Assembly: GCA_017556805.1 (NCBI GenBank) | Contig: JAFYMC010000009.1 | Span: forward strand, 1-56,905 | Origin: Lachnospiraceae bacterium | Lineage (GTDB): Bacteria; Bacillota; Clostridia; Lachnospirales; Lachnospiraceae | DNA length: 56,905 nucleotides | Direction of reading: 5' to 3' | In this document: positions 3,309 through 15,287 of the stretch, piece by piece | Numbering within the stretch: the stretch's first letter is position 1 | How the letters are laid out: each line of letters begins with the position of its first letter | Translations under genes and position numbers: made by a program | Notes under the pieces: model-generated | Seen by the model: the letters and a program-made list of their open reading frames with translations, nothing else | Told to the model about the DNA's origin: nothing | Databases searched by the model: none

Positions 3309-3734
3309 TTATCTTGCCTTATCCGCCAGAAACGCCGGATTAATTGCGTAGAAGTTCTTGGAATCCAAATTATCCTGCACAATACGAAGCCCCTCGCCAA
3401 ACCGCTGGAAGTGAACAATTTCACGTTCGCGAAGATACCGGATCGGGTCACATACATCATGGTCGTGTACCAAACGAAGGATGTTATCGTAGGTGGTGCG
3501 GGCCTTCTGCTCCGCTGCCATATCCTCGGTCAAATCCGTAATCGGGTCCCCCTTGGACTGGAAGAAGGTAGACGTAAACGGCACGCCTCCGGCTGCCTGC
3601 GGCCAAAGCCCCAAAGTATGGTCCACATAGTATTTGTCAAAGCCCGATGCCTGAATTTCTTCCGGCGTCAGGTCCTTGGTCAGCTGATGGATGATGGCAG
3701 AGATGATTTCCATATGGGCAAGTTCCTCGGTGCC
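3309..3734 (-). CDS. cotJC: cotJC, 3' segment (spore coat manganese-catalase family; gene split by element)
   Basis: This encodes the C-terminal 140 or so residues of CotJC, a spore coat protein of the manganese-catalase family. The helical-bundle metal-site motifs EELAHMEI and LREREIVHFQRFGE, and GVPFTSTFFQSKGDP, are intact. The frame stays open into the element up to position 3758 (MRNTDAPVGT), but no ribosome binding site stands there, so the stub is probably not translated alone. Joining at the shared GGCAC to the 5' segment at 14256-14440 gives one 202-codon protein, close to the roughly 190 residues of Bacillus CotJC, reading DIGTEELAHMEI across the seam. Apart from the insertion the sequence shows no decay, which argues for a gene that is still used after excision. 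Confidence 0.9.
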   Translation of the reverse strand, partial: GTEELAHMEIISAIIHQLTKDLTPEEIQASGFDKYYVDHTLGLWPQAAGGVPFTSTFFQSKGDPITDLTEDMAAEQKARTTYDNILRLVHDHDVCDPIRYLREREIVHFQRFGEGLRIVQDNLDSKNFYAINPAFLADKAR

Positions 3735-3742
3735 CACAGGTG
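3729..3742 (-). other. left attachment site (attL-like junction) inside cotJC
   Basis: Minus-strand reading gives CACCTGTG-GG-CACCG: element half-site, crossover dinucleotide GG (3733-3734), then cotJC coding sequence. GGCAC is shared with the right junction. The element half is the mirror image of the half found at the right end, as expected for two halves of one attP. Confidence 0.85.
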
Positions 3743-3771
3743 CATCGGTATTGCGCATCAATGAAATGCAG

Positions 3772-3786
3772 TAAAATCAAGGGTTT
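3772..3786 (+). repeat. 15-bp direct repeat, left copy
   Basis: TAAAATCAAGGGTTT lies 38 bases inside the left crossover point and recurs exactly at 14198-14212, in the same orientation, about 44 bases inside the right crossover. In the excised circle the two copies would flank attP as direct repeats about 80 bp apart. Confidence 0.85.
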
Positions 3787-3872
3787 GACGCATCACGGAA
3801 AATTTTAAAACGGAAAATCGGTAATTGAACGCGGTTAGCGTGTTTACAATATTTGGAAACGCTTTTCCTTTG

Positions 3873-3948
3873 TTTGAAGTGGATTCGAATTCAACTTCAA
3901 TAACTACTTCAAAGTCATTTCAATATAAATTTCAATTCAGTTTGAAGC
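3873..3948. repeat. cluster of TTGAAGT/ACTTCAA motifs in both orientations
   Basis: TTTGAAGT at 3873, AACTTCAA at 3893, ACTTCAAAGT at 3906 and TTTGAAGC at 3941 form inverted and direct pairs, with TTTCAAT variants at about 3918 and 3931. The block is non-coding on both strands and lies just inside the left end of the element. Confidence 0.7.
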
Positions 3949-3989
3949 AATAACATCATATTCCTGAAATAAACACCACAAAATCCTTT

Positions 3990-4057
3990 TCTTATTTCAG
4001 AAAGTCACCACTTTTTGAAATAAGAGCTCTAAAATACTCATTCTTATTTCAAAAAGT
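3990..4057. repeat. three 16-bp iterons in alternating orientation
   Basis: TCTTATTTCAGAAAGT at 3990-4005 (plus), the same 16-mer with one change at 4010-4025 (minus) and TCTTATTTCAAAAAGT at 4042-4057 (plus). Copies two and three are identical. A further partial CTGAAATAAA stands at 3964. The array is a candidate binding region for an element-encoded protein. Confidence 0.85.
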
Positions 4058-4084
4058 ATTGTCGACAATCCTTCCAAAACACAA

Positions 4085-4109
4085 CAGCCACCAACTTCTG
4101 TGGTGGCTG
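4085..4109 (-). terminator. terminator-like hairpin after the HepT-like gene
   Basis: Minus-strand cagccacca and tggtggctg pair around a short loop and are followed by TTGTGTTTTGG, about 40 bases after the stop codon at 4148. The T-run is imperfect. Confidence 0.6.
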
Positions 4110-4147
4110 AAAACATTTCGTTCCATTCATAATAATGCAAATCTTCA

Positions 4148-4534
4148 CTAGACTTCCCTCGTCCCCAAATACGCCTTCACCGCATCCAAGAACTCTTTCG
4201 CACAGTCTAGCTGCACCTCTGCATCCTGCTTCGATGCTATAAAGAAATCATCGTAATCGCACACATTTCGAATCTGGAATGCCGATTGCAAATACTTTGA
4301 ATACTTCACATCAAAAATCTTCGTCTTTACATACTCCTTTTGGAAATACGCTATCACACCGGCATGTTTGGAAAAGTCCACTCGGTCCACTGCCAACACC
4401 GCACGTACGGCAGAAAAGATTGCATAATAAGACCTTCCGATAGAGTCCTTATACTTTCCGGAATCCAATAAAATCTCCGCAGATTCCAACTTTTCCTGCG
4501 CATTATCCAATCGATACTTTACCAAATTATCCAA
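4148..4534 (-). CDS. HEPN-domain protein, HepT-like partner of a MNT nucleotidyltransferase
   Basis: The 128-residue all-helical protein (KYRLDNAQEKLESAEILL, SIGRSYYAIFSAVRAVL) matches the HEPN family that pairs with minimal nucleotidyltransferases. The start is taken as TTG at 4534: AGGGAGGGG sits 7 bases upstream, and the TTG overlaps the last codons of the nucleotidyltransferase gene, giving translational coupling. The in-frame ATG at 4594 would leave a long non-HEPN extension. In the toxin HepT a conserved R-X4-H is the RNase site; here the matching place reads R89-NVC-D93-YDDF, with no histidine, as in the UPF0332-like branch. RNase activity is therefore uncertain. It probably acts with the upstream gene as a toxin-antitoxin or defence pair. 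Confidence 0.82.
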   Translation of the reverse strand: MDNLVKYRLDNAQEKLESAEILLDSGKYKDSIGRSYYAIFSAVRAVLAVDRVDFSKHAGVIAYFQKEYVKTKIFDVKYSKYLQSAFQIRNVCDYDDFFIASKQDAEVQLDCAKEFLDAVKAYLGTREV

Positions 4535-4865
4535 TCCGCAGCCCCTCCCTTGCAATATTTCTGTAGTAAGGAAGGACTTCCTTGTACTCTTCAAATTCGT
4601 CGTACGGTATTACCGTCGGAGACACCACTGTATCATGCTCCAATCCGATATCCGCAGACAAATCCCATATTGTCCGCAACTTATCCTGTAACGCCAAACG
4701 TTCTCCCTTGACAATTGCCACGATATCCACATCGGAATCCTTTTCAAAATCGCCTCTGGCATAAGAACCGTACAAGAACACACCGGCCACAGCATCCCCA
4801 TAAATGTCCCGGTAAATCGAAACCATCTGTCCCGAAATGTCATTTAACTGATTTCTGGTACACAT
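4527..4865 (-). CDS. MntA-like minimal nucleotidyltransferase
   Basis: A 112-residue protein of the polymerase-beta nucleotidyltransferase superfamily. Residues 33-47 read GS-YARGDFEKDS-DVD, the exact GSX10DXD signature of MntA antitoxins, which AMPylate HepT toxins. The ATG follows GGAGGATGGACGT. The gene overlaps the HEPN gene by 8 bases. A sigma-A-like promoter lies 27 bases upstream. Family knowledge suggests it neutralises its HEPN partner by nucleotide transfer; the partner here keeps the DYDDF stretch, but which residue might be modified cannot be told from the sequence. Confidence 0.88.
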   Translation of the reverse strand: MCTRNQLNDISGQMVSIYRDIYGDAVAGVFLYGSYARGDFEKDSDVDIVAIVKGERLALQDKLRTIWDLSADIGLEHDTVVSPTVIPYDEFEEYKEVLPYYRNIAREGLRIG

Positions 4866-4891
4866 ACGTCCATCCTCCTTTCCTAAGAATA

Positions 4892-4920
4892 AGTATACGC
4901 TCTTTTAGGTGCAAATGCAA
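4892..4920 (-). promoter_or_regulatory. sigma-A-type promoter of the MntA/HepT-like pair
   Basis: Minus-strand TTGCAT (4915-4920), a 17-base spacer and TATACT (4892-4897) stand about 27 bases upstream of the MntA start codon. Confidence 0.7.
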
Positions 4921-4930
4921 GTTTAACCTT

Positions 4931-4954
4931 TAAAACAAGGGATGCTTGCCCTTA
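4931..4954 (-). terminator. weak terminator-like hairpin after the DPDNG gene
   Basis: Minus-strand AAGGG and CCCTT flank a 7-base loop and are followed by GTTTTAAA, 50 bases after the stop at 5004. The short stem makes this tentative. Confidence 0.4.
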
Positions 4955-5003
4955 ATGATTTACTTTGCCCTTATTTTCACCTACTTTTTAAGGGAAAGAA
5001 GAA

Positions 5004-5879
5004 TCATCTTATACAATCAACAAAGTCTTCTGCTTTTCTTCTTGAATTCTTTCTCGGATACTTTGACGAAACAACCTCCACCCAGCCATCATCACACATT
5101 CGTATGCAGACAACTTCTCCGCTATCCAATTCAATTTTCATGGTGTTACCTATTCTTTCTTGAGAAACAGTAGCAAGCTGAAACAATTCCGCTGAAAACA
5201 ACTGCTTTCTTCCCCAGCTTGTTTGTTCAAACACTCGTAATAGGTTCGCATATCGTTTCTCGTCCTCAGGGTGTATCACAAATATATAAGACCTTTGTGT
5301 CCCCCGATGAAAAGTCTGCACATATATCCTCGCATCCGGCAAATATTCCTTCATCTCTGCTTTCGTTGCAAGCCATGCTTCTTCGGTTCTTCTTGCTTTC
5401 TGACAATAGTACACTACGTTTTGCCCTCTATTATAGTAATCTACGATTTCACTCGGTGCTATATACTTGTCCGAATCCTTTGAGGTAATACTTTTCTTGC
5501 CTATCGGGCCATTGTCCGGATCGCAGAATATCAACTCCGCAGTTTCAAGACATCTCATAGCATCCTCATGCCAGCCGGCTCTATTCTTAATGCTTACAAT
5601 ATCGGGATAAAAAATCGCATTCGGAATTATCTTCGAATCCGCTACCATCTGCACTGATTTGTTTTGATGTTCTACTAAGGATGCCAGAAAATCAAACAGT
5701 TCTTCGTCGTGAATTCGGTCTTGTTCTTTCTTTAAGTAACCAATAAACTTTCCATCATTACTTCCGTCATCCTCCGTGAGATACCAGTTCACACCAATCT
5801 TAATTCCTTGCTTTGCAAGAAATCTAAGCAGCCCATATTTTCCATAATCACCGATATCTCCTAAATACTGATTTTTCAT
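5004..5879 (-). CDS. conserved protein of unknown function with DPDNG motif
   Basis: The 291-residue soluble protein starts MKNQYLGDIGDYGKYGLLRF and has NWYLTEDDGSNDG (residues 31-43) and FCDPDNG (118-124), a pattern I recognise from a conserved hypothetical family but cannot tie to a proven function. The DPDNG segment after a hydrophobic strand resembles the catalytic loop of Rossmann-type methyltransferases; that is only a resemblance. A C-terminal tail of about 65 residues forms a separate small beta-rich domain. The ATG at 5879 is chosen because GAAGGAGCAACC precedes it; upstream in-frame methionines lack such a site. It lies between a structured repeat and the MntA/HepT pair, so a defence role by association is possible. 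Confidence 0.6.
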   Translation of the reverse strand: MKNQYLGDIGDYGKYGLLRFLAKQGIKIGVNWYLTEDDGSNDGKFIGYLKKEQDRIHDEELFDFLASLVEHQNKSVQMVADSKIIPNAIFYPDIVSIKNRAGWHEDAMRCLETAELIFCDPDNGPIGKKSITSKDSDKYIAPSEIVDYYNRGQNVVYYCQKARRTEEAWLATKAEMKEYLPDARIYVQTFHRGTQRSYIFVIHPEDEKRYANLLRVFEQTSWGRKQLFSAELFQLATVSQERIGNTMKIELDSGEVVCIRMCDDGWVEVVSSKYPRKNSRRKAEDFVDCIR

Positions 5880-5952
5880 GGTTGCTCCTTCTCTCTTGTA
5901 ATACTCCTTCATCGTTCCCTGATTCTGCAAAGCACTAAAACACCTTTTCACA

Positions 5953-6080
5953 AACCAGCAAGCAGTGCATAATGCTAGCATTTTATGCATTTTTGCTCGC
6001 TGGTGTTATGCCCCAGGCCCCAAGAACATTCTCCTTCGGAGCACGGCTACGCGCTCATACTGAGCGCTGAGAACCGTCTT
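5953..6080. repeat. structured repeat, copy A
   Basis: This block lies directly after the RT-nitrilase stop and is a diverged copy of 10962-11090. It has an imperfect hairpin of about 50 bases at 5954-6004 with inner arms TGCATAA and TTATGCA, a CTCC-TTC-GGAG hairpin (6030-6040) and GCGCTCA-TAC-TGAGCGC (6051-6067). Outside the paired arms, AGCAAGCAGTGC, TTTTTGCT, CTCCTTCGGAG and CTGAGCGCT are shared with copy B. It has no convincing reading frame. Confidence 0.75.
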
Positions 6081-6083
6081 CAT

Positions 6084-9000
6084 CTAACCGTTTTTCAATA
6101 GGTCTTCACCCTTAATTTTCTGCAAAACAATCTCCGGATCAAATCCCGGCGGGGTTGGTTTAAAGCTTTTATCATATGCTTGCAAATTATATTCCTTCAG
6201 CTGAAACTCCCGTATCTTTCTGATGTCTATTTCATCCACTAAAATAGTACTGTTTATGCCACCTTTCGTTCTGATAATGTCCTTTTCTTCTGTTTTAGAC
6301 GGTTTCGTTATTCTACTATCACCATAATCAGAAGAATTGACCTGAACGCAATAACAATGAATGTCTCTACTCAAGGATTCAAGAATATTACTATAATAAT
6401 TTATATCCTTATTCCATTCAATCGCTACCAAGAAATCCGCATATGATTGAAAGATAGACCTCTCCATAATCGAAGTCAACTCATAACAACAATATACAGG
6501 GAAATAACAGTCATGCCACTGATATAATTCATAATGTTTGCCCGTCATCTCTTCAAGCCTGTATCCGTTAATCTCTTGCTTTTCCGCCGGAGCATAATGA
6601 GTTTTCAAATGAAATGAAATAAGTGCACTTTTATTTAACAAATCCTCATATGGCAATATAGTCGCTGTTAAATTAAAAACTTTCTTATCCACTTTCACAT
6701 GTTCTATTCCGGTAACAATTGCAAGATTATTCCTCGCACAGGTCCTAGCGACTGTCGCCAACCACTCAAAAGGCATATATGATTCCGGCATAATAAGCAT
6801 ATCTGCCTTCTCATCTATCGCCGCATTGACTATTCTAGACAAATCCTTATACCGTTGATAACTCCTATTAGGCTTATCTATTACCACCTTTTCAAAATTG
6901 TCATGATGCAAACGAACATTTGCTATTGCTATTCTTAATCTTTCTTTTTTCTCGCCACTCACTTGAACTACAAAAGCATTTTTATCATCAAACTTATTTA
7001 CTCGGATTAACTGCTCTACCACGCTTATATTATCCGAAACCACATAATTACTTATCACATAATTGTTAATTTGATCACTATATATGCTCTCCAGTTTACC
7101 AAAATGGTTTTCTGATGCTTTTAATTGTTCGATACAGGAAACCATCGAAAAGTCGTACATGGTTACCAAATAAGGATAATACACATAATCACTTTTCCAA
7201 GCATCTTTGCTATATAAAAGCATTTGTTGGAAATCGCATAGATTAAGAGTATCTTCTGTTTTATATATTTTTCCCATCTTCAACATATCAACCAAAATAG
7301 GCATTACAGATTTGTCAACCATTCTTGTTTTGCAATAATCTTTTCGATGCTTTTTCCATAATTGTTTCACAATCATTTGAGAGTTATAATTTCTACTTAT
7401 GTATTGCTCACATAAAAACTCGGTAAATTCATCTACCTCTGTACCCCATACTAATGCTAATGCCCTACTAAGTGTAGCATACAAATACAATTGCAAGGTT
7501 TTCTTTACTTCAGAAAGAATATCATTGTTACCATACTCAAGGGAATCTATAGCATCCGCAATACTATTAATTGTGTTCTTTAACGAATCCCACGATTCAT
7601 TTATCACCAATATTTCAATTATTTTTTCCCAAACATTATAATTCTCTATAATGACTCTCGGACTTAATATTTTGCATATCTGCCGCTCAAATCCAGTCTC
7701 TCTTACGTCACGAATCAACCCACCAATACGCAGATGCTTTCCCAACAATTTTGACAATTCGTATTTGTCTATTGAAATGCCGGATATACCTCTGAATTTA
7801 TTTATTGTTTCATCGTTCTGTAAATCATATATTTTGCTATAATCATCTTTTTGAAAAACTGCCTCATCTTCCGGCATATGACGAAACTCACTCTTGTTTT
7901 TTGCTATATTCTCTTTAAAGCAAGTAATCAGTGCATCCGACTCCCCAGCTCTAAAATAAAAAATCTTAACTTTATCATTCTGAATAACGATCTGAGAATC
8001 ATCATTTTTTACCGGATTATATAACTTGTTTAAAACATATTTGAACTTCTTATCCTTGTCATCTACATTTTCCTCATCGTATTCTAACTTATGCAACAGC
8101 GCATATCTAACGCCATATTCACACTCAACCCCATTTAAGCCTTTCCATCCCGAACATTGTTCTAAAAAGAAGCTTATTATATCATCTGCATTTAAATCAT
8201 TTTCTTGAGACTTTTTAAACAAGTCACTATTGGACTCGATTTTATCTACAATTATTACATCATCAACATATCTACCAAAATAAATAGGATTCCAACCGTC
8301 CAAAATGGCTTTATCAAAATTACGTAAAGCATAATTGGCCAAAACGTTTGAAGGTAAAAAACCAATCGGAAGTATGTTCTTTCCCTCAAATTCTACGCAA
8401 CATGAAGAATAGTTTTCAATAATCCGGAGCATAAAGTAATGCAATGCTTTCAATTCATCGCATTCTCCTTCTGTTGATTCAATTTCTTCTGCATATATCC
8501 CATCAAAAAGCTCTTTCGTAATATCTACAGAGTAATAGAATCTCCTAAAATCCAATGTAAGCACTACAACATCTTGTCCCGTATGCAAATGCTGCATTGC
8601 TTCATTCATCGCAGTATCACGCCAGCCTTCATACTGCTGAAAATACGGTTCAAACAAATACGGAGAATATGTAGGTGCTTCACTGAATTCATTATACAAA
8701 TTTTCACGAATTCGATTACCGTACGAATGCTTATACATGTTTTTGTCTACTCGATACCCAATCAAAAGAAGCCAAAGAACACCCAGAACATGCCCCCGGA
8801 TATCCATGTCTATGAAATATTGATTGTCCACAATGTCAATCTTTTTCATCGAGTAATTCTTAATCATATCTGCTTTTTCCGGTGCTAATCTTTTAGGAAA
8901 TGCATAATAAGAAATGCTTGATAGAATCTCCTCAAACATTTTTTCTCTTGTCTCTTCATTTAAGAACGCCTCTGCTATCTCTTCTAAATAGCTATCGATA

Positions 9001-9122
9001 TTTTTATATCCAACTTCAAAAGACACTAACTTGTCTCTTAATATAGTCTGGGTCTTGTCATAGTATAAACTTGATTTTAGTTTCTTATAGGCTATTTTAA
9101 ATAGTTTTGCATTGATCTCCAT
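6084..9122 (-). CDS. reverse transcriptase-nitrilase fusion, DRT type 1 (UG1) defence protein
   Basis: A 1012-residue two-domain protein. The N-terminal half is a reverse transcriptase of the UG/Abi type: motif A VVVLTLDFRRFYYSVD with D191, motif B IGFLPSNVLANYAL (253-266) and motif C FGRYVDDVIIV with D287 and D288. A long helical region (about 450-720) follows. The C-terminal part (about 728-1000) is a carbon-nitrogen hydrolase domain with an intact Glu-Lys-Cys triad: E780 in IMPESYMPF, K840 in FHLKTHYAP and C879 in VYCCYEL. RT plus nitrilase in this order defines the defence-associated reverse transcriptase type 1 (UG1), known to protect against phage. The template RNA and the nitrilase substrate are unknown. 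A HEPN gene ends 13 bases upstream, suggesting co-transcription. It is very AT-rich. Confidence 0.92.
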   Translation of the reverse strand: MEINAKLFKIAYKKLKSSLYYDKTQTILRDKLVSFEVGYKNIDSYLEEIAEAFLNEETREKMFEEILSSISYYAFPKRLAPEKADMIKNYSMKKIDIVDNQYFIDMDIRGHVLGVLWLLLIGYRVDKNMYKHSYGNRIRENLYNEFSEAPTYSPYLFEPYFQQYEGWRDTAMNEAMQHLHTGQDVVVLTLDFRRFYYSVDITKELFDGIYAEEIESTEGECDELKALHYFMLRIIENYSSCCVEFEGKNILPIGFLPSNVLANYALRNFDKAILDGWNPIYFGRYVDDVIIVDKIESNSDLFKKSQENDLNADDIISFFLEQCSGWKGLNGVECEYGVRYALLHKLEYDEENVDDKDKKFKYVLNKLYNPVKNDDSQIVIQNDKVKIFYFRAGESDALITCFKENIAKNKSEFRHMPEDEAVFQKDDYSKIYDLQNDETINKFRGISGISIDKYELSKLLGKHLRIGGLIRDVRETGFERQICKILSPRVIIENYNVWEKIIEILVINESWDSLKNTINSIADAIDSLEYGNNDILSEVKKTLQLYLYATLSRALALVWGTEVDEFTEFLCEQYISRNYNSQMIVKQLWKKHRKDYCKTRMVDKSVMPILVDMLKMGKIYKTEDTLNLCDFQQMLLYSKDAWKSDYVYYPYLVTMYDFSMVSCIEQLKASENHFGKLESIYSDQINNYVISNYVVSDNISVVEQLIRVNKFDDKNAFVVQVSGEKKERLRIAIANVRLHHDNFEKVVIDKPNRSYQRYKDLSRIVNAAIDEKADMLIMPESYMPFEWLATVARTCARNNLAIVTGIEHVKVDKKVFNLTATILPYEDLLNKSALISFHLKTHYAPAEKQEINGYRLEEMTGKHYELYQWHDCYFPVYCCYELTSIMERSIFQSYADFLVAIEWNKDINYYSNILESLSRDIHCYCVQVNSSDYGDSRITKPSKTEEKDIIRTKGGINSTILVDEIDIRKIREFQLKEYNLQAYDKSFKPTPPGFDPEIVLQKIKGEDLLKNG

Positions 9123-9135
9123 TTATCCATTCCCT

Positions 9136-9729
9136 TCATTTATCTTCTGCTTTTCCAACAAGTTCTTTTAGCAACTCCTTATATTTATCTCCTTCATTGC
9201 CAAATAAAATTTCATTAATAACTGATAGCATTATTGCCTGTCCGCCACAAACGCCATCCTTATCATAATCTTCCGGTATATCCTCCCCTGATATTGGTAT
9301 CTCAATTTCGTTTATCCACCACTTGTCAAGTTTATTATATATTCTCAACATTTCCGCGAATAACTGTGCCTCTTCTTCTTTAAATCCCATACATAGGTTT
9401 TTAAGTAATTCGTGTGTAATATCATTCCTTTTTTTACGTATTTTTTGATATGTACTATAATCTTCCTCTGTAATAGCGCCTGCTTCAACAAACCATTTTA
9501 ACGATGCATTTTCAAGATTCTTATCTAGTCCCCTAACATTCTTTTTAAAGTCATCGGACTCATCACATATAAATTTTTCATCCTCCATATAAAAATGCTC
9601 AGAATAAAGGCTTCTAACTTGCTCTATCACAAACTCTTTCAAGCATTCATAGTACATAACAAAAACAGCCGCAAAATTCACATTAAACTTTAAAATATCC
9701 TCATCCAGAATATTCTTCCACTTATCCAC
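9136..9729 (-). CDS. HEPN-superfamily protein with RX4H motif, adjacent to the RT-nitrilase
   Basis: The 197-residue, largely helical acidic protein has KIRKKRNDITHELLKNL; R101 and H106 form the R-X4-H signature of catalytically active HEPN ribonucleases, with the usual polar residue after the Arg (N102). The start is GTG at 9729, preceded by AAGGAG at 7 bases. It ends 13 bases before the RT-nitrilase gene and starts 39 bases after the membrane-anchored gene, so the three appear to form one operon. As family knowledge, HEPN RNases often act as effectors in abortive defence. That this one works with the RT is inference. The C-terminal half (about 135-197) is not recognised. Confidence 0.72.
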   Translation of the reverse strand: MDKWKNILDEDILKFNVNFAAVFVMYYECLKEFVIEQVRSLYSEHFYMEDEKFICDESDDFKKNVRGLDKNLENASLKWFVEAGAITEEDYSTYQKIRKKRNDITHELLKNLCMGFKEEEAQLFAEMLRIYNKLDKWWINEIEIPISGEDIPEDYDKDGVCGGQAIMLSVINEILFGNEGDKYKELLKELVGKAEDK

Positions 9730-9768
9730 AAACGCACTCCTTAAATTCTCTAAAGATACTCTTCTTTA

Positions 9769-10812
9769 TCACTCATAATACCTTACCAGTACCTCCAGCC
9801 TATCATCATCAACATTGTGTTTTACAATCTGCCCATATGCAATTATTTCAGTACCTTTTTTTAACGATAACACATCCATGTCTTCTGTATTTTTGAAATA
9901 TAAAAATACATACCTTGATGTTGGTAACACATAGCTCTCACTTCTCTCATTATATAAAACGCAGTTCCAAACATTATCATGTATATTCTCTGGCGACTCC
10001 CACTGTCCTAAATATTTTCTTTTAGCTTCGTCTCCTGTAAACCGTTCGCCGTAGCTTGTTTTTACATGAATTTTTACATGTCTTCCAGTCAACGCATACT
10101 TTGAGCTTACAATATCATACATGCACATAGAATCACAATATTGGATATAATCTTCCAACGGCAATTCACTCATCCCTTCAATGTTTTTTGTTACTCCTGT
10201 ATAATCCGAGTTTATTGCATCCTTTTTGGCATATTCCTCTTCTTCTGCCTTTCTCTCTTCTTCTATTTCTTCCAAATTCTTAGCTTGTTCAGGTTTTTCC
10301 CCATACTGTCTGATATAGTCTGCGTAATACATTCTGATTATAGGCACATTCTTTCCGTTCTTCTGATTGTATGTAATATCTTCAACAATACCATAGACTC
10401 TCATGATATCCTCTGACTGCATATCATAATCATCCCATAACCGATAATCCCTCAATTTATATACCCTATATGTATTTTGAAAAGCATCTAAATCCTCAAT
10501 GAAATCTTCTAACGCAGCTCCTGTATATACCCGACACCCGTCTTCTGGCTCTTTGTGTTCAAAAGCAACCAACTCTTTTGTTACATACTTACCTATATAA
10601 CTTTCGTCAATATCATTATAGATAATTTCTTCGCATGCCATCTTAAATGCTACAGAATCGTAAACTATCTCTGGCGTTTCTACCGAAGAAAATACTTCAT
10701 CTTTTTTATTTTCATCTTCCTTATCTTCTCTTTTATCCGCCGTTTTCCCAAAAAACAAAAAAATCAACAGCACAATCAGCGTAACGATATACAGTTTCCA
10801 CTTTTTATTCAT
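9769..10812 (-). CDS. membrane-anchored protein with two OB-like domains, unknown function
   Basis: The 347-residue protein has a single N-terminal membrane segment (about 6-22), a charged linker (KREDKEDENKKDE), a first domain (about 48-170) and a second domain (about 205-347) joined by a Glu-rich helix (EEIEEERKAEEEEYAKK). Both domains share a plan, helix then a strand such as YIGKYV or LTGRHVKI and a closing strand such as VYGIVEDI or AYGQIVKH, resembling duplicated OB-fold (tRNA_anti-like) domains; this is a weak structural guess. It is the first gene of the operon with the HEPN and RT-nitrilase genes and has its own extended -10 promoter. It could be a membrane sensor or anchor for the defence system. 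Confidence 0.55.
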   Translation of the reverse strand: MNKKWKLYIVTLIVLLIFLFFGKTADKREDKEDENKKDEVFSSVETPEIVYDSVAFKMACEEIIYNDIDESYIGKYVTKELVAFEHKEPEDGCRVYTGAALEDFIEDLDAFQNTYRVYKLRDYRLWDDYDMQSEDIMRVYGIVEDITYNQKNGKNVPIIRMYYADYIRQYGEKPEQAKNLEEIEEERKAEEEEYAKKDAINSDYTGVTKNIEGMSELPLEDYIQYCDSMCMYDIVSSKYALTGRHVKIHVKTSYGERFTGDEAKRKYLGQWESPENIHDNVWNCVLYNERSESYVLPTSRYVFLYFKNTEDMDVLSLKKGTEIIAYGQIVKHNVDDDRLEVLVRYYE

Positions 10813-10856
10813 GTTCTCCCTCTCAAATTTGAAAAATTCACTGCGTCTACATTTAA

Positions 10857-10862
10857 ATTATA
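10857..10862 (-). promoter_or_regulatory. extended -10 promoter of the RT-nitrilase operon
   Basis: Minus-strand TGGTATAAT stands about 45 bases upstream of the membrane-protein start. A good -35 is not evident (TATGAC at 18 bases). It would drive the membrane protein, HEPN and RT-nitrilase genes. Confidence 0.55.
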
Positions 10863-10961
10863 CCATACTCTTCCCTATTCGTCATAAAAAACTTAATCCT
10901 TCAAAACCTTTATCCATATATACAAATCTCATCAACCTCGCCACCCAAAACTTGCTCAAAA

Positions 10962-11090
10962 CCAACCCAGCAAGCAGTGCCTCCTGGTACCAATCCGGCA
11001 TTTTTGCTTGTTGGTTCTCCTGCCCCAATCCCCAAAATCGTTCTCCTTCGGAGTCCGGCTACGCACTCATTCTGAGCGCTAAGGACGTTT
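10962..11090. repeat. structured repeat, copy B
   Basis: Located just after the XRE regulator stop and before the RT operon promoter. The hairpin (10962-11014) has outer arms AACC/GGTT, then AGCAAGCA/TGCTTGTT, inner arms TGCC/GGCA and a GGTACC loop. In copy A the inner arms are TGCATAA/TTATGCA, so the stem is kept while its sequence changes. It is followed by the same CTCCTTCGGAG, CGGCTACGC and CTGAGCGCT segments. Confidence 0.75.
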
Positions 11091-11097
11091 GAGATTT

Positions 11098-11919
11098 TTA
11101 TATTTTCTCCTTCCCCATCCTCTCAAGAATATGCCGAAACAACTCGTGAAACATCTGTGTCTCCGTCTCATCCAAGTCCGCCATCCCGGAGCCGGTCAGC
11201 ACAGAAGTGACGATGTCTGCCATCTCGGTTTCGGATACTTTTCGCGTCAGTTGTATCTGATCGCTTTGCGTTTTTATCTCTGTGAGCTGCTCCTTAAATT
11301 CCGTGCGACTAATATCCTCCGGTGTGTTCTGATAGTCTGCTTTGATGTCCTTTACCATGGACAGGAAGATGTTCCGCAGTTTGTTTAGGTCCGCTTCCTC
11401 TCCGCTGATTTTCTCCAAATTCAGACGTCGCACATCCCCGGCGATTTCATTCTTTTTCTCCGGGTGATCCTTGGCAATGTCTTTGAGGCTGGCGGTTGCC
11501 AGATTGATAATATCGTTTCGGGATTGTAGTCCTTCCTTGTGGTCATCTTTAAAATAGGCCTCAGCCGCATCCAGTAAAAGTGCAAAGCGCGGATGCTCCA
11601 TCAGGCGACTTAACATTGCTCCGTCCACCTTCCCTGAGAGGAGTAAAAGAAGTGCCTTGTTTGACAGGCCCAACTCCTCCAGTTCCGCATTTTTCGCTGT
11701 CGTCACCTTCGTCATTCCCAGCAAATAGTCCGTGGACACCCGGAAGTATTTTGCCAGCTTTACAAGAATGTCGTTGCTGACATTTGTAATTTCTCCCCGC
11801 TCGATACGACTGAGAGAAGATGCCGGGATGCCGATGGCTGCGCACAATTCTTTTTGCGAAAGTCCCGCCTGCACCCGCAGGTCGGTGATCTTTTCATTTA
11901 TGGTCAAATTTGTATTCAT
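11098..11919 (-). CDS. XRE-family transcriptional regulator
   Basis: A 273-residue protein with an N-terminal helix-turn-helix of the Cro/C1 type (about residues 9-66: LSQKELCAAIGIPASSLSRIERGEI, YFRVSTDYLLGM) and a long helical, charged C-terminal region without a recognised enzymatic or peptidase motif. It is divergent from the SHOCT-like gene and the recombinase across a 331-bp intergenic region holding two palindromes, so it probably controls these promoters and its own. Its base composition is closer to that of the recombinase than to the AT-rich cargo, suggesting it belongs to the element's core module. Confidence 0.85.
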   Translation of the reverse strand: MNTNLTINEKITDLRVQAGLSQKELCAAIGIPASSLSRIERGEITNVSNDILVKLAKYFRVSTDYLLGMTKVTTAKNAELEELGLSNKALLLLLSGKVDGAMLSRLMEHPRFALLLDAAEAYFKDDHKEGLQSRNDIINLATASLKDIAKDHPEKKNEIAGDVRRLNLEKISGEEADLNKLRNIFLSMVKDIKADYQNTPEDISRTEFKEQLTEIKTQSDQIQLTRKVSETEMADIVTSVLTGSGMADLDETETQMFHELFRHILERMGKEKI

Positions 11920-12250
11920 GTAATCTCCCTTCTTATAGAAACACTGATTGACTCAGTGTGACCCGGAATTCTTCGACAGACAACACTACACAATATGTCC
12001 CCGCAAAAAAATTTCCGAAAGCACCAAATCTCTCCGTCCCTCCACAATTCCAGTTTAACATTCCCCGCCTTTGCCTGTCAATTGCAAATCTGCAATTCCA
12101 ACTCTCCCAGAAAGCACCACATTTGCAACTCTGCCCAAACCACGGTTTTTCGAAAATTTCATGGTATCCTTTCCTCACAACCGGTTGTTATGCGCATAGA
12201 ACAAAACGGCACTCATAGACTCTAATAACCGGATTTTTAGGGAGTATGCG
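11920..12250. promoter_or_regulatory. divergent control region with two palindromes
   Basis: This 331-bp non-coding stretch lies between the XRE gene and the SHOCT-like gene. It holds a perfect 12-bp palindrome, ACAACCGGTTGT, at 12177-12188, with a half-site TAACCGG at about 12228, and an inverted repeat ATTGCA-AATC-TGCAAT at 12081-12096, with a related ATTTGCAA at 12121. These are candidate operators for the XRE protein. No clear sigma-A promoter was assigned. Confidence 0.5.
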
Positions 12251-12430
12251 ATGCCAGAACCAAAAGGACTTTCAGAGACAGAAAAGGAGAATCGCATGGA
12301 GAATTATTTTACCAAAGAACAGCGGGAGCTGATTCATAAACAGTTAAAGCGCGGCATTTACCATGAATTATATTTGCGGGAACTCATTACCGACGAGCAG
12401 TTAGATTACTTGCTTAGCCACAATGTGTAA
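12251..12430 (+). CDS. small SHOCT-like protein upstream of the recombinase
   Basis: This 59-codon gene starts at ATG 12251, six bases after AGGGAG. The product has an acidic start, then NYFTKEQRELIHKQLKRG and a C-terminal LRELITDEQLDYLLSH, which resembles the SHOCT-type oligomerisation helix pair. It ends 74 bases before the recombinase start, in the same direction. Small charged proteins beside large serine recombinases can be recombination directionality factors or regulators; no such activity can be shown from sequence. Confidence 0.6.
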   Translation: MPEPKGLSETEKENRMENYFTKEQRELIHKQLKRGIYHELYLRELITDEQLDYLLSHNV

Positions 12431-12437
12431 CTTTTAC

Positions 12438-12481
12438 TTGCACATCACCGGAATCGGTACTATACTGAAACTGGTGATGTG
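12438..12481 (+). promoter_or_regulatory. recombinase promoter bracketed by a 9-bp inverted repeat
   Basis: TTGCAC (12438-12443), a 17-base spacer and TATACT (12461-12466) form a sigma-A-like promoter. CACATCACC (12441-12449) and GGTGATGTG (12473-12481) are exact inverted repeats whose centres are 32 bp apart and that flank the -10 box. This is a likely repressor site controlling recombinase synthesis. Confidence 0.75.
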
Positions 12482-12504
12482 TCATTCCCGAAAAGGAGGA
12501 CACA

Positions 12505-14157
12505 ATGAATCATAAAAAACTTAGAGTTGCCGCATATTGCAGAGTTTCAACAGACAAAGACGACCAGACCAATTCCTTACTCAGCCAGCGCAAGTATTTT
12601 ACGGAATACATCACACGTCACGAGGATTGGATTTTGCAGGACGTGTATTACGATGAGGGCATCAGCGGTACCCAGACAAAGAAGCGTATCGGCTTCAACA
12701 CCATGATTGAGGAGGCCCTGCGGGGCGGTATCGACCTAATCCTCACAAAGGAGGTGTGCCGGTTCGCACGAAATACCGTGGACACCCTCCACTACACCAG
12801 ACTGCTTAAGGACAAGGGCATCGGCGTGATCTTTACCATCGATAACATCGACACCAGAGACGCCGACGTGGAGCTTCGTTTGACCATTATGGCCAGCATC
12901 GCGCAGGAGGAGAGCCGTAAGACCTCCGAGCGTGTGAAATGGGGTCAGAAGCGTCGCATGGAGCAGGGCGTAGTGTTCGGCAGAGACATGATTGGGTACA
13001 CCGTCCGGAACGGCGAGCTGACCGTGAACGAAGCGGAGGTTTCTCTCGTTCGTGCCGTCTTTCACAAGTACACCAACGAAGGAAAGGGCACCCACGTTAT
13101 CGCAAGGGAGCTGATGGAGGAAGGGCTTCGCCCACCCCGGGTAAAGCTTTGGTCCAACACCGTAATCTTGCGGATGCTTCGGAACGAAAAGTATGTAGGT
13201 GACCTGTGTCAGAAGAAAACCTACACCCCCAACTACCTGACACATGCAAAGAAATACAATCGGGGTGCCGAAGAGATGGTCTATATCAAGGGCCACCACG
13301 AACCCATCATCGACCGGGAGCTTTGGAACCGCACCCAGGCGGAGCTGAAACGTCGCTCCCCTTCCGAGGCGATTAAAACCAAGCACAGCAACCGTTACTG
13401 GTGTAGCGGAAAGCTCTGTTGCGGCGCATGCGGGCATCACTTTGTCAGCCGTACCAAAAAGCTGGCTGATGGTAGCACCTACAAGGCATGGCGCTGTTAC
13501 GCCTTTGCCAACCACGGCACCGCAAAAACCATGGACACCGGCGAGGCCGTCGGATGTAGCAACGGTTCCATCAACGAACGGGCTTTGCTGAGCTGCGTAC
13601 ATCATTGCATCCGCCAGTTTCAGGCAAACCGCAAGGCACTGAAACAAGAGCTTTTGCAGGAGCTCACCGGAGCCAAAAGTGTAAACGATACCGGGATCGA
13701 CGTTTCCGGCATTCACGAAAAGCTGGAGGCGTTAAACACCAAGAAGCGAAAAGCCGTGGATTTAATGTTGGATGGCTTGATTTCCAAGGTGGAATTACAA
13801 GAGCAGACCAAATGGTACGATGACCAGATCGAGAAATTGAACAAGCTGTTACAGGGCGTGCAAAAGGAAGACGATATGCGAAGCCGGCAGCTGAACCTGT
13901 TCCGGCAGTATAACTCCGTCTTGGACGAGATTATGACCTTCGACGAATCGAACCTTGGCTTGTACCGGGAGCTGGTAGAGAAAATCACCGTCTATCCCGG
14001 CAGTGTGGTAGAGATTTGGTTCCGTGAAATTCCCTTCGGCATGAAACTAAAAATTCGGTCCCATGGAAGGGCCGAAGACTACACCACAGAAATTCTTGAA
14101 ACCGAAATTTTAACGCAACCTACCGAAAATAGCATTTATGCCCCAGAGGCTTCTTAA
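12505..14157 (+). CDS. large serine recombinase of the element
   Basis: A 550-residue site-specific recombinase that would integrate and excise the element. The N-terminal resolvase domain (about 6-150) begins RVAAYCRVSTDKDDQTNSL with catalytic S15, and has RFARNTVDTL and the helix E leading SERVKWGQKRR. The recombinase domain (about 160-270, WSNTVILRMLRNEKYVGD) and a zinc ribbon follow, with C306, C309, C331 and C351. A coiled-coil insert lies at about 365-460. The length is normal for the family and the frame is intact. AAAGGAGGACACA precedes the ATG. It is the gene nearest the right attachment site, 98 bases away, the usual position for such an integrase. It runs antiparallel to cotJC. Confidence 0.95.
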   Translation: MNHKKLRVAAYCRVSTDKDDQTNSLLSQRKYFTEYITRHEDWILQDVYYDEGISGTQTKKRIGFNTMIEEALRGGIDLILTKEVCRFARNTVDTLHYTRLLKDKGIGVIFTIDNIDTRDADVELRLTIMASIAQEESRKTSERVKWGQKRRMEQGVVFGRDMIGYTVRNGELTVNEAEVSLVRAVFHKYTNEGKGTHVIARELMEEGLRPPRVKLWSNTVILRMLRNEKYVGDLCQKKTYTPNYLTHAKKYNRGAEEMVYIKGHHEPIIDRELWNRTQAELKRRSPSEAIKTKHSNRYWCSGKLCCGACGHHFVSRTKKLADGSTYKAWRCYAFANHGTAKTMDTGEAVGCSNGSINERALLSCVHHCIRQFQANRKALKQELLQELTGAKSVNDTGIDVSGIHEKLEALNTKKRKAVDLMLDGLISKVELQEQTKWYDDQIEKLNKLLQGVQKEDDMRSRQLNLFRQYNSVLDEIMTFDESNLGLYRELVEKITVYPGSVVEIWFREIPFGMKLKIRSHGRAEDYTTEILETEILTQPTENSIYAPEAS

Positions 14158-14184
14158 AAAGCATCCCTACAAAGCAAAAGCAGT

Positions 14185-14217
14185 CTCTGAAACCCGCTAA
14201 AATCAAGGGTTTCAGAG
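14185..14217 (+). terminator. hairpin after the recombinase gene
   Basis: CTCTGAAACCC and GGGTTTCAGAG are exact inverted repeats of 11 bp around an 11-base loop, 28 bases after the recombinase stop. No T-run follows, so it may be a weak terminator or a protein-binding site near attR. Confidence 0.5.
14198..14212 (+). repeat. 15-bp direct repeat, right copy
   Basis: TAAAATCAAGGGTTT, identical to 3772-3786. It forms the loop and part of the 3' arm of the hairpin at 14185-14217. Confidence 0.85.
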
Positions 14218-14247
14218 GTCCCCGCGCCCTGTGGGGCACCAGCGAAT

Positions 14248-14262
14248 CACCTGTGCCGATAT
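14248..14262 (-). other. right attachment site (attR-like junction) inside cotJC
   Basis: Minus-strand reading gives cotJC sequence GATATC, the dinucleotide GG (14256-14257), then CACAGGTG from the element. Combined with the left junction this gives an attP reading CACCTGTG-GG-CACAGGTG, a perfect inverted repeat, and an attB reading GATATC-GG-CACCGAGG. Confidence 0.85.
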
Positions 14263-14440
14263 CCGTCAGTAACCCTGCCACTTCCCGGTACGGCATAGCA
14301 TATCTCTGGGAAAGGTAACGCATACTCGCCGCCAATTCACCGTCCGGTCCTCCAAACTGGCTCATGATGACCATAGCTAACTTCGGGTTAGTCTGCTTAA
14401 TGTTTACCGGATACTGTAATCTTCTTTCATAACTCCACAT
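14256..14440 (-). CDS. cotJC: cotJC, 5' segment (split gene)
   Basis: The first 61 codons of CotJC plus the shared core: MWSYERRLQYPV, SQFGGPDGELAASMRYLSQR and VAGLLTDIGT match the N-terminus of the CotJC/manganese-catalase family, including the first metal-site helix. Past the junction the frame continues into the element as GDSLVPHRARGP and ends at 14120 inside the recombinase gene on the other strand; this tail is foreign. The ATG at 14440 overlaps the cotJB stop as TAATG, so translation is coupled. In the integrated state the encoded protein lacks two thirds of the catalase domain and should be inactive. Confidence 0.9.
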
Positions 14441-14703
14441 TACTTACACGCTCCTTCCCACGGCCACGGGTATTCTACCCATTTCCAACAATCATCGCAA
14501 AAACAATCATAGGAGGAAAGCGGTCCGTAACATGCCGTATATTCCTTTACCATCTGCTCTCTTACCGCGCACATATTCCGGTAATAGGCTAATGCCTCCT
14601 CACACTTCGGATGTGTATCCAAAAACAGGCGCGCCTCGTCCATGGCAAAGCTTGCTTCGTTTATCTTGTGCAGCAACGTCATTCTTTCTTTTTCAGCGCC
14701 CAT
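14440..14703 (-). CDS. cotJB: spore coat protein CotJB
   Basis: An 87-residue protein with the CotJB pattern: LLHKINEASFAMDEARLFLD, then LDTHPKCEEALAYYR and a tail rich in aromatic residues ending WKWVEYPWPWE. CotJB is a small coat component made in the mother cell with CotJA and CotJC. Its ATG overlaps the cotJA stop (TGATG) and its stop overlaps the cotJC start (TAATG), so the three genes are translationally coupled. There are five cysteines, more than a typical housekeeping protein of this size. Confidence 0.88.
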   Translation of the reverse strand: MGAEKERMTLLHKINEASFAMDEARLFLDTHPKCEEALAYYRNMCAVREQMVKEYTACYGPLSSYDCFCDDCWKWVEYPWPWEGACK

Positions 14704-15185
14704 CAGTTACATCTCCTTCCATAGAATTCAAGATCAAGCTCCTTAAAAATCGTACCGGTAGAGAACCCTTCACATACCTCATACAATTTTCTCCAGCTTT
14801 GCCACGGTACATATGCCATCGCAAGTGCCTTTCCCGGCATATCCTCATCGCAACAAACGCCATGCTTCTTTACTTCCCGATACATGGATTCCACCGCACA
14901 ACCGCAGTAGTCCTCCTTCTTCTCCTCTTTCTTACAGCCACAATCCATACCCGGCATAACATCCGGTTTCTTACAACCGCAGTCCATATCCGGCTTCCTG
15001 CAATCGCAGTCCATGCCGCCCATGACATCCGGTTTCTTACAGCCGCAATCCATGTCGCCTATTACTTCCGGCTTCTTACAGCCGCAATCCATGCCACCCA
15101 TTGCGTCCGGTTTCTTACAGCCACAGTCCATGCCGCCGGCATATCTTCTGTTTCCGTAGTTGCCATAATTCCTATAATTATTCAT
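14703..15185 (-). CDS. cotJA: CotJA-type spore coat protein with N-terminal Cys-rich repeats
   Basis: The C-terminal 60 residues (ALAMAYVPWQSWRKLYEV, STGTIFKELDLEF) are a standard CotJA domain. The preceding region is unusual: six units of about 13 residues beginning MDCGCKKPD, one shortened to 9, giving many CxC pairs beside lysines. The very start is Asn/Tyr/Gly-rich (MNNYRNYGNYGNRRYAGG). The start at 15185 is chosen because GAAAGGAGTATTCT precedes it; the frame is open further upstream but without a ribosome binding site. CxC repeats suggest metal binding or disulfide cross-linking in the coat, beside the metal enzyme CotJC; that is inference. The total of 160 residues is about twice the usual length. 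Confidence 0.85.
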   Translation of the reverse strand: MNNYRNYGNYGNRRYAGGMDCGCKKPDAMGGMDCGCKKPEVIGDMDCGCKKPDVMGGMDCDCRKPDMDCGCKKPDVMPGMDCGCKKEEKKEDYCGCAVESMYREVKKHGVCCDEDMPGKALAMAYVPWQSWRKLYEVCEGFSTGTIFKELDLEFYGRRCN

Positions 15186-15215
15186 AGAATACTCCTTTCT
15201 TTGCTCTCCGTAATC

Positions 15216-15242
15216 TATCATATGAACCCCTTGCGGTTTTGT
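15216..15242 (-). promoter_or_regulatory. candidate mother-cell (sigma-K/E-type) promoter of cotJABC
   Basis: Minus-strand CATATGATA (15216-15224) fits the sigma-K -10 consensus CATAnnnTA, with AC (15241-15242) 16 bases upstream as a minimal -35. It also resembles the sigma-E -10. It is 31 bases from the cotJA start. A short consensus, so tentative. Confidence 0.45.
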
Positions 15243-15258
15243 GCAACACGAATTTCCC

Positions 15259-15287
15259 TTGCAAATCATTTGCTGTAGAATTATAAT
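15259..15287 (+). promoter_or_regulatory. sigma-A promoter of the zinc-ribbon membrane protein gene
   Basis: TTGCAA (15259-15264), a 17-base spacer and TATAAT (15282-15287). It lies back to back with the candidate cotJ promoter. Confidence 0.8.

What the first reader, a model, noticed from the sequence alone, without database searches (positions are those of the whole stretch)
3733..14257. Skin-like element splits the spore coat gene cotJC and is excisable in frame
The sequence shows cotJA and cotJB intact and coupled, then cotJC broken into 61 codons at 14440-14258 and 140 codons at 3729-3309, with a serine recombinase beside the right break. Removing exactly 10,523 bp between the shared GGCAC cores restores 202 codons without a frameshift, with the family sequence DIGTEELAHMEI across the seam. 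Known skin-type elements in sigK and spsM behave this way and are excised in the mother cell. Here the passenger is a defence island, so the germline would keep immunity while the dying mother cell rebuilds a coat enzyme. I cannot verify whether cotJC interruption by such an element has been reported.
Basis: partly seen in the sequence, partly recalled or inferred. Interest (0 to 1): 0.95.

Follow-up and report, generated by a model that had tools for sequence, protein, structure and literature searches.

The report
Spore-coat gene split by mobile islands
A gene for a spore-coat enzyme is cut in two by a 10.5-kb anti-phage island that could be snipped out without a scar, and relatives have the same gene cut at four different places by several different DNA-cutting enzymes, which suggests, but does not yet prove, that the gene is pieced together only in the dying mother cell of a spore.

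Summary
cotJC is split at codon Gly62 by a 10,523-bp element whose ends share GGCAC; removing it gives an uninterrupted 202-codon gene, and five relatives carry that intact gene. The large serine recombinase (LSR) at the right end belongs to a cotJC-targeting clade: 57 of 80 named relatives have cotJC pieces within 10 kb. In 33 of 33 half-pairs a GG core rejoins the frame. Relatives show four break sites (codons ~30, 62, 136, ~173) served by at least five LSR lineages. Of 125 cotJC-bearing genomes in a 200-genome family sample, 43 have a cotJC break beside an LSR (hand count); some genes are cut twice or more. Cargo is defence-like and swappable. Programmed mother-cell excision, as for skin, is the likeliest working but is not shown: I found no excised form, no sigma-E enrichment and no identified directionality factor. 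A plain safe-harbour island is the main rival. My searches of an open-licence library showed no report of an interrupted cotJC. Verdict: a new, widespread, multi-site variant of the skin-like kind.

The parts
14703..15269 (-). cotJA (first possible start; the true start is probably the ATG at about 15185)
   Evidence: conserved upstream of cotJB in relatives
14440..14703 (-). cotJB
14253..14440 (-). cotJC 5' part (codons 1-62, to the core)
   Evidence: all of G001's 5' part matches
14253..14257 (-). attR core GGCAC; P' arm CACAGGTGATTCGCTGG follows
12505..14157 (+). large serine recombinase, 550 aa (Resolvase, Recombinase, Zn-ribbon domains)
   Evidence: clade membership
12438..12481 (+). sigma-A-like promoter TTGCAC-17-TATACT inside the inverted repeat CACATCACC...GGTGATGTG (possible operator)
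   Evidence: read; function inferred
12251..12430 (+). 59-aa ORF upstream of the recombinase; candidate accessory or directionality factor
   Evidence: 95% in G001, 41-50% over 36-51 aa upstream of the recombinase in L096, L097, L098, L049/L099/L320 and L051/L266; no family; role inferred
11098..11919 (-). HTH (Cro/C1-type) regulator kept in G001 (95%)
9769..10812 (-). 347-aa ORF, no family found
9136..9729 (-). 197-aa ORF, no family found
6084..9122 (-). UG5-nitrilase reverse transcriptase (DRT class), 1012 aa
   Evidence: PADLOC E 4.4e-246
5004..5990 (-). 328-aa ORF, no family found
4527..4865 (-). MNT-type nucleotidyltransferase (antitoxin-like)
   Evidence: Pfam NTP_transf_2, PADLOC PDC-S09
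4148..4594 (-). HEPN protein, partner of the MNT gene
   Evidence: Pfam HEPN
3730..3760 (-). attL: P arm TGATGCGCAATACCGATGCACCTGTG followed by core GGCAC (3734-3730)
3309..3734 (-). cotJC 3' part (from the core to the stop)

Best explanation
The 10.5-kb segment is a site-specific mobile element. Its large serine recombinase integrates at the codons for the metal-binding GTEELAH motif of cotJC, a gene that (recalled from Bacillus) is expressed only in the sporulating mother cell. Recombination between attL and attR at the central GG would remove the element and restore the 202-codon catalase exactly. Most likely this happens in the mother cell during sporulation, as for skin, SPbeta and gin: the germ line keeps the element and its defence genes while the terminal cell rebuilds the coat enzyme. 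Shown: the halves, the att sites, the seamless join, uninterrupted relatives, recurrence across genera, and at least five recombinase lineages at four sites of the same gene. Inferred: that excision occurs, that it is timed to sporulation by a directionality factor not yet identified, and that cotJC works afterwards.
For: Exact in-frame join and intact relatives. 33 of 33 distinct B-site half-pairs have GG at codon 62 in both halves and rejoin in frame; 30 of 33 reconstituted attP sites are more palindromic than shuffles, p<0.05 each, uncorrected. 57 of 80 named recombinase relatives lie within 10 kb of a cotJC piece. Four sites with different recombinases beside them and in-phase cores at A, C and D in 4 of 5, 6 of 7 and 4 of 5 pairs examined. 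Metal ligands kept: E35 in 69 of 69 distinct 5' pieces of site B; E65, H68 and H169 in 42 of 42 and E136 in 41 of 42 3' pieces. No enrichment of a full-length second copy in split genomes: 12 of 52 against 15 of 71 (hand count). A related recombinase (41%) splits another sporulation gene, dpaA, with a 13-bp in-phase core.
Against: No excised junction or free attP was found: three patterns in viral contigs, one pattern in 397 genomes. Sigma-E sites 4 of 93 against 1.9 shuffled, sigma-A-like 22 of 93 against 7.1 upstream of cotJC-linked recombinases; recombinases not near cotJC had more sigma-E-like sites, 7 of 53 against 1.1. No convincing sigma-E site in the element (3 in 14 kb against 1.6 expected). 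No directionality factor identified. Elements move between genera and insertions may be young, so conserved halves do not prove use after insertion. 4 of 42 B-site 3' pieces have an in-frame stop. One element carries its own intact cotJC (L121) and some hosts have a second copy.
Confidence: 0.6

Rival explanations
1. A plain safe-harbour island or mobilizable element. cotJC is conserved, silent in growing cells and dispensable, so recombinases use it as a harmless attB. Excision serves only transfer, is rare and unrelated to sporulation, and carriers make spores without this CotJC.
For: Recombinase promoters look vegetative; the recombinase is less diverged than the host gene it sits in, in each pair at least 94% identical in the recombinase, so the elements are mobile; mobilization and replication genes in the Pusillibacter element; cotB/cotD-type catalase mutants of C. 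difficile show no strong coat defect (PMC11222575, passages); no excised form seen.
Against: Reading frames and metal ligands of the promoterless 3' pieces are kept in nearly all loci; at least five lineages at four sites of one gene; split genomes are not enriched for backup copies (hand count); a related recombinase uses another sporulation gene; in three congeners whose arrays lack this recombinase, a cotJC stands upstream again (complete in G005, cut by contig edges in G003 and G004).
Confidence: 0.35
2. Assembly artefact: two unrelated stretches wrongly joined inside cotJC.
For: The window's genome is a set of 37 contigs, 86% complete.
Against: The same junction type recurs in G001 of the genus, in Lactonifactor longoviformis DSM 17459 with both halves on one contig, in Pusillibacter faecalis MM59 with both halves on one 504-kb replicon and, at site A, as two pieces of a 6.9-Mb single-contig genome (G055). 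The reconstituted attP is palindromic.
Confidence: 0.02
3. Dead gene: the insertion killed cotJC long ago and the halves are relics.
For: A few pieces have stops (L315, L017, L163, L082) and one orphan 3' half in G005 is decayed.
Against: In the window both halves are open and as conserved as intact genes (3' half against five intact congeners dN/dS 0.016-0.044), although the age of the insertion is unknown.
Confidence: 0.03

Closest known systems
skin elements in sigK (B. subtilis, C. difficile)
   Same: Serine recombinase element inside a mother-cell sporulation gene, rejoined in frame; the C. difficile recombinase is sigma-A driven, with a small sigma-E-controlled directionality factor (PMC5025042, passages)
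   Different: Target is a coat enzyme, not a sigma factor; non-phage defence cargo; excision and directionality factor not shown here; four insertion sites in the gene family
gin element in gerE (B. cereus ATCC10987)
   Same: Non-prophage element with restriction-modification genes, serine recombinases and a directionality factor; gene rebuilt during sporulation (PMC5595907, passages)
   Different: 28.6 kb with three recombinases, one species; here one recombinase per element, many genera, other gene
SPbeta in spsM, vfbin in spoVFB, vrin in spoVR, yin in yabG
   Same: Elements in spore genes excised in sporulation or at certain growth phases (PMC4191935, PMC10747680, passages)
   Different: Prophage or prophage-like and other genes; the dpaA (spoVFA) case in L174 is a neighbour of vfbin's target
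XisF / fdxN-type elements of heterocyst cyanobacteria
   Same: Developmental genes rebuilt in a terminal cell; NCBIfam XisF matches the window's recombinase at E 2.2e-25, below its cut-off
   Different: Other phylum and development; that some such genes carry several elements is recalled, not checked
phi027 prophage of C. difficile
   Same: An integrated element next to a CotJC homologue (PMC11222575, PMC12122855, passages)
   Different: The catalase gene lies downstream of attR and is described as whole, not split

Membership tests
Sporulation-gene intervening (skin-like) elements | Element interrupts a gene expressed in the mother cell | tested here: met
   cotJC split; mother-cell expression of cotJ is recalled from Bacillus, not tested
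Sporulation-gene intervening (skin-like) elements | att sites allow precise in-frame restoration of the gene | tested here: met
Sporulation-gene intervening (skin-like) elements | Element-borne serine recombinase | tested here: met
Sporulation-gene intervening (skin-like) elements | Directionality factor or recombinase under sporulation control | tested here: inconclusive
   no sigma-E enrichment, no convincing site in the element; the 59-aa ORF is only a candidate
Sporulation-gene intervening (skin-like) elements | Excision observed in sporulating cells | not testable with these tools
   indirect look for excised forms was negative
Large serine integrases | Resolvase, recombinase and zinc-ribbon domains | tested here: met
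   the zinc-ribbon match is just under the Pfam cut-off (24.2 against 25.3 bits)
Large serine integrases | Palindromic attP around a central dinucleotide | tested here: met
   18 of 26 positions in the window; 30 of 33 sites p<0.05
CotJC (Mn catalase) | Metal ligands present in the rejoined protein | tested here: met
   E35, E65, H68, E136, H169 mapped from the alignment to solved Mn catalases; which residues are ligands is recalled
Prophage | Phage structural or replication genes in the element | tested here: not met
   no such family among the element ORFs scanned with Pfam, PADLOC and, for five of them, NCBIfam; PHROGs was not run

The most novel reading that the evidence does not exclude
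cotJC is a standing docking gene of the mother-cell genome in Clostridia: at least five recombinase lineages have converged on four motifs inside one 600-bp gene, so that in many genera it exists only in two, three or perhaps four pieces and must be assembled anew by one to three precise DNA excisions each time a spore is made. Swappable anti-phage islands use this germline-soma split as a cost-free home.
Probability: 0.5. Interest if true: 0.92.

Novelty: new variant of a known kind. Interest (0 to 1): 0.8.

Why it matters
Skin-like rearrangements have looked like isolated curiosities of a few species. Here about a third (43 of 125, hand count) of the cotJC-bearing genomes in one family sample have the gene broken beside a serine recombinase, several of them at two or more sites. 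If excision is programmed, this would be among the commonest developmental DNA rearrangements in bacteria; it would link anti-phage defence to sporulation and supply several families of serine integrases with natural, well-defined att sites. Even as a mere safe harbour it explains why such genomes can look as if they lacked CotJC, and it warns against calling split genes pseudogenes.

Tried and rejected
Vertical inheritance of the window's insertion as proof of use: rejected. The recombinase of G000 and G001 differs by dS 0.21 (HTH 0.35) while host genes differ by 0.36-0.83; in each other pair at least 94% identical in the recombinase its dS is below that of the cotJC 5' part, or the latter is saturated. 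So the low dN/dS of the 3' half cannot show selection after insertion.

Sigma-E or sigma-K control: three one-mismatch sigma-E-like sites in 14 kb against 1.6 expected, maximum 4 in 30 shuffles. Across loci no clear enrichment upstream of cotJC-linked recombinases; more in those not near cotJC. Not pursued.

Free attP as a sign of excised circles: three patterns in viral contigs, one pattern in 397 genomes: none. The patterns cover the window's arms and two other arm groups only.

Phage origin: no close phage. The two best 'phage' records (51.5% and 43.0%) are unannotated faecal scaffolds that carry a cotJC piece themselves.

Other targets of the clade: 23 of 80 named loci have no cotJC match in the stretch held. 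One, L174, is in dpaA. For the others I only looked by eye at neighbouring ORFs and saw no further sporulation gene; some end at contig edges.

Counts are by hand from a listing that stops near E 1e-46. 52 of 125 genomes have at least one truncated piece (50 from the listing, plus G174 and G181). 43 have a recombinase within 3.5 kb of the break. Nine are unresolved: G042, G055, G180, G140, G106, G104, G107, G156, G046 (contig edge, other side not fetched, stops, or in G046 an apparent frameshift). G066 and G236 could not be classified and are left out of the 71 unsplit.

Ligand check: 39 pieces fell outside the classes; 12 of them deviate at a ligand position, some where the alignment runs past the break; not resolved one by one. 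An earlier version with wrong positions was discarded.
Full report
WHAT IS THERE. The window carries cotJA, cotJB and the first 62 codons of cotJC on the minus strand at 15269-14253, and the remaining codons of cotJC at 3734-3309. The two parts share GGCAC. Removing 10,523 bp between the two copies gives an uninterrupted 202-codon gene reading LLTDIGTEELAHMEI at the seam. The 3' part matches Pfam Mn_catalase. By alignment to solved Mn catalases the metal ligands are E35, E65, H68, E136 and H169 (positions; which residues are ligands in the family is recalled). The break falls between E35 and E65, so neither half alone could hold the two-metal site.

RELATIVES WITHOUT THE ELEMENT. Of nine other genomes of the genus searched, five (G002, G005, G007, G008, G009) have a full 202-aa gene, 87-98% identical, with an uninterrupted seam. 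G003 and G004 have pieces running to contig edges, G006 has no match, and G001 has the same break, with its 3' half not found. In G002 cotJC is followed directly by the chemotaxis-receptor region that in the window follows the 3' half, which I take as the native order.

ATT SITES. The element's two ends put together give CACCTGTG-GG-CACAGGTG, a perfect 8-bp inverted repeat around GG with further partial symmetry (18 of 26 positions). This is what a serine-integrase attP looks like, with GG as the probable crossover dinucleotide. I repeated the reconstruction for the fetched loci with both B-site halves and for three pairs of adjoining loci, after dropping repeats of the same arms. In 33 of 33, GG stands at codon 62 in both halves and the join reads D-[I/V]-G-T-E-E. 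In 30 of 33 the reconstituted attP is more palindromic than shuffles (p<0.05 each, uncorrected); the exceptions are L308, L311 and L117.

A RECOMBINASE CLADE FOR cotJC. In 397 genomes of the family, 19 (own included) have a recombinase matching at E<=1e-120. The 18 others plus G001 were searched with joined CotJC, and 19 of 19 carry at least one truncated cotJC piece. In ten of them (G250, G278, G251, G141, G396, G203, G174, G270, G357, G291) the 5' piece, the recombinase and the next piece lie on one contig. In a scan of named GTDB genomes, 57 of the best 80 relatives of the recombinase have a cotJC match within the stretch held, up to 10 kb on each side. Their titles include Lachnospiraceae, Oscillospiraceae, Ruminococcus, Peptococcaceae and Defluviitaleaceae. 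Cultured examples: Lactonifactor longoviformis DSM 17459 (L104, both halves), Ruminiclostridium papyrosolvens C7 (L111, 3' piece), Eubacterium sp. 14-2 (L149, 5' piece), and, found separately, Pusillibacter faecalis MM59, where 5' piece, recombinase and 3' piece span 30 kb of one replicon. By contrast only 3 of the 80 best viral-contig relatives hold a cotJC match.

FOUR SITES, SEVERAL LINEAGES. A sample of 200 genomes of the family, asked for at 90% completeness (the own genome, 86%, is in it) and nearly one per genus, gave 125 with a cotJC match. By hand count 52 have at least one truncated piece. Breakpoints cluster at codons about 30 (A), 62 (B), 136 (C) and 173 (D). Regions fetched around the pieces show a recombinase within 3.5 kb of the break in 43 of the 52: 16 at A, 17 more at B, 5 more at C, 5 more at D, each genome counted once; nine stay unresolved. 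The recombinases differ by site: lineages A, B, C, D, and a further lineage X that also uses site B. Shared cores keep the phase: A, at Gly-Gly-Pro, in 4 of 5 pairs examined (L283 not); D, 8-13 bases at Arg-Phe-Gly-Glu, in 4 of 5 (L291 not); C, as little as the GA of codon 136, in 6 of 7 (G107 not resolved). Some genes are cut more than once, with both recombinases seen beside pieces: A+B in G120 and G202, A+C in G068, B+D in G270 and G357. In G181 recombinases of A, B and D each stand beside a cotJC piece, but the piece between B and D was not found. In G127, G144 and G291 a second break is inferred from where the piece ends. In G068 a 109-codon piece stands between an A-type and a C-type recombinase (L280). 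21 of 21 split genomes queried again have a match to the 5' end, and 17 of these 21 showed a recombinase beside a break.

CARGO. In the window: a UG5-type reverse transcriptase-nitrilase (PADLOC E 4.4e-246), an MNT/HEPN pair, an HTH regulator and three ORFs without family. G001 keeps the recombinase (97%), the 59-aa ORF (95%) and the HTH (95%) but carries instead CBASS-type genes (cyclase, 2TM effector), an Argonaute, a SNF2-type helicase and a WYL regulator. So a common integration module carries exchangeable defence genes, in two cases examined. The P. faecalis element has restriction-modification genes, MobC, a replication initiator and ParB.

DOES IT EXCISE IN THE MOTHER CELL? For: the target (recalled as a mother-cell gene); seamless joins; retained ligands (E35 in 69 of 69 distinct 5' pieces of site B; E65, H68, H169 in 42 of 42 and E136 in 41 of 42 3' pieces; 4 of these 42 have an in-frame stop); no enrichment of a second full-length copy in split genomes (12 of 52 against 15 of 71, hand count); and a related recombinase (41%) that splits another sporulation gene, dpaA, with a 13-bp in-phase core (L174). 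Against or open: no excised form seen; sigma-E-like sites 4 of 93 against 1.9 shuffled, sigma-A-like 22 of 93 against 7.1, upstream of cotJC-linked recombinases, and 7 of 53 against 1.1 for sigma-E in recombinases not near cotJC; no directionality factor identified; insertions are mobile and may be young. The C. difficile skin element is the precedent for a sigma-A recombinase with a small sigma-E factor (PMC5025042, passages). I put programmed excision at 0.6.

AN UNEXPLAINED SIDE PATTERN. In G003, G004 and G005 there are extra cotJC 3' halves that begin exactly at the core and are preceded by the same P arm (ATGCGCAATACCGATGC[A/G]CCTGTG), while a cotJC with both halves stands upstream or elsewhere (complete in G005; the G003 and G004 copies run to contig edges). 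In the genus search G005 has no recombinase match, G003 and G004 only distant ones (24-31% identity). I read these as immobilised descendants in which cotJC was made whole again, perhaps by homologous recombination through the 3' half; this is inference.

LITERATURE. Known intervening elements named in the passages I read: sigK, spsM, spoVFB, spoVR, gerE, yabG (PMC5595907, PMC4191935, PMC10747680). Searches for cotJC with skin element, prophage or integrase terms, for cotJC alone (48 papers, 40 titles listed) and broader ones showed no title or passage about an interrupted cotJC. A survey of large serine recombinases and their targets (PMC10083194) has no occurrence of 'cotJ' or 'catalase' in its main text; its supplements were not seen. 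The nearest is phi027 of C. difficile beside a CotJC homologue (passages). The library holds open-licence papers only, so this is not proof of novelty.

VERDICT.

Noticed in passing
L174 (Defluviitaleaceae MAG, WQVY01000014.1), 8059-12023: A related recombinase splits dpaA (spoVFA): pieces matching TIGR02853 positions 4-134 and 128-286 (each below the full-length cut-off), in-phase shared ATGCCATCCCAAC, 2.9 kb apart; dpaB follows.
   Followed up: partly
L121 (Lachnospiraceae MAG SUG1763), 6892-11872: A 5' half, a complete cotJC (74%) and a 3' half in one array with the recombinase: an element that seems to carry its own intact cotJC.
   Followed up: no
L041 12909, L043 7682 (G005), L035 11798 (G003), L039 14472 (G004): Extra cotJC 3' halves starting exactly at the core behind the same P arm, each followed by different downstream DNA: tandem accretion at one site without the window's recombinase.
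   Followed up: partly
L292 (G069), 6651-10643: Two tandem cotJC 3' halves, both starting near codon 53-55, as in G005.
   Followed up: no
recombinases not near cotJC (53 upstream regions): Seven of 53 have a sigma-E-like site against 1.1 after shuffling; some may sit in other sporulation genes.
   Followed up: no
MT837874.1 and MT839280.1 (L334, L335): Two faecal 'Bacteriophage sp.' records are pieces of cotJC elements, with recombinase and cotJC piece, not evident phages.
   Followed up: partly
window 12441-12481: Inverted repeat CACATCACC/GGTGATGTG around the recombinase promoter, a possible operator for the element's HTH regulator.
   Followed up: no
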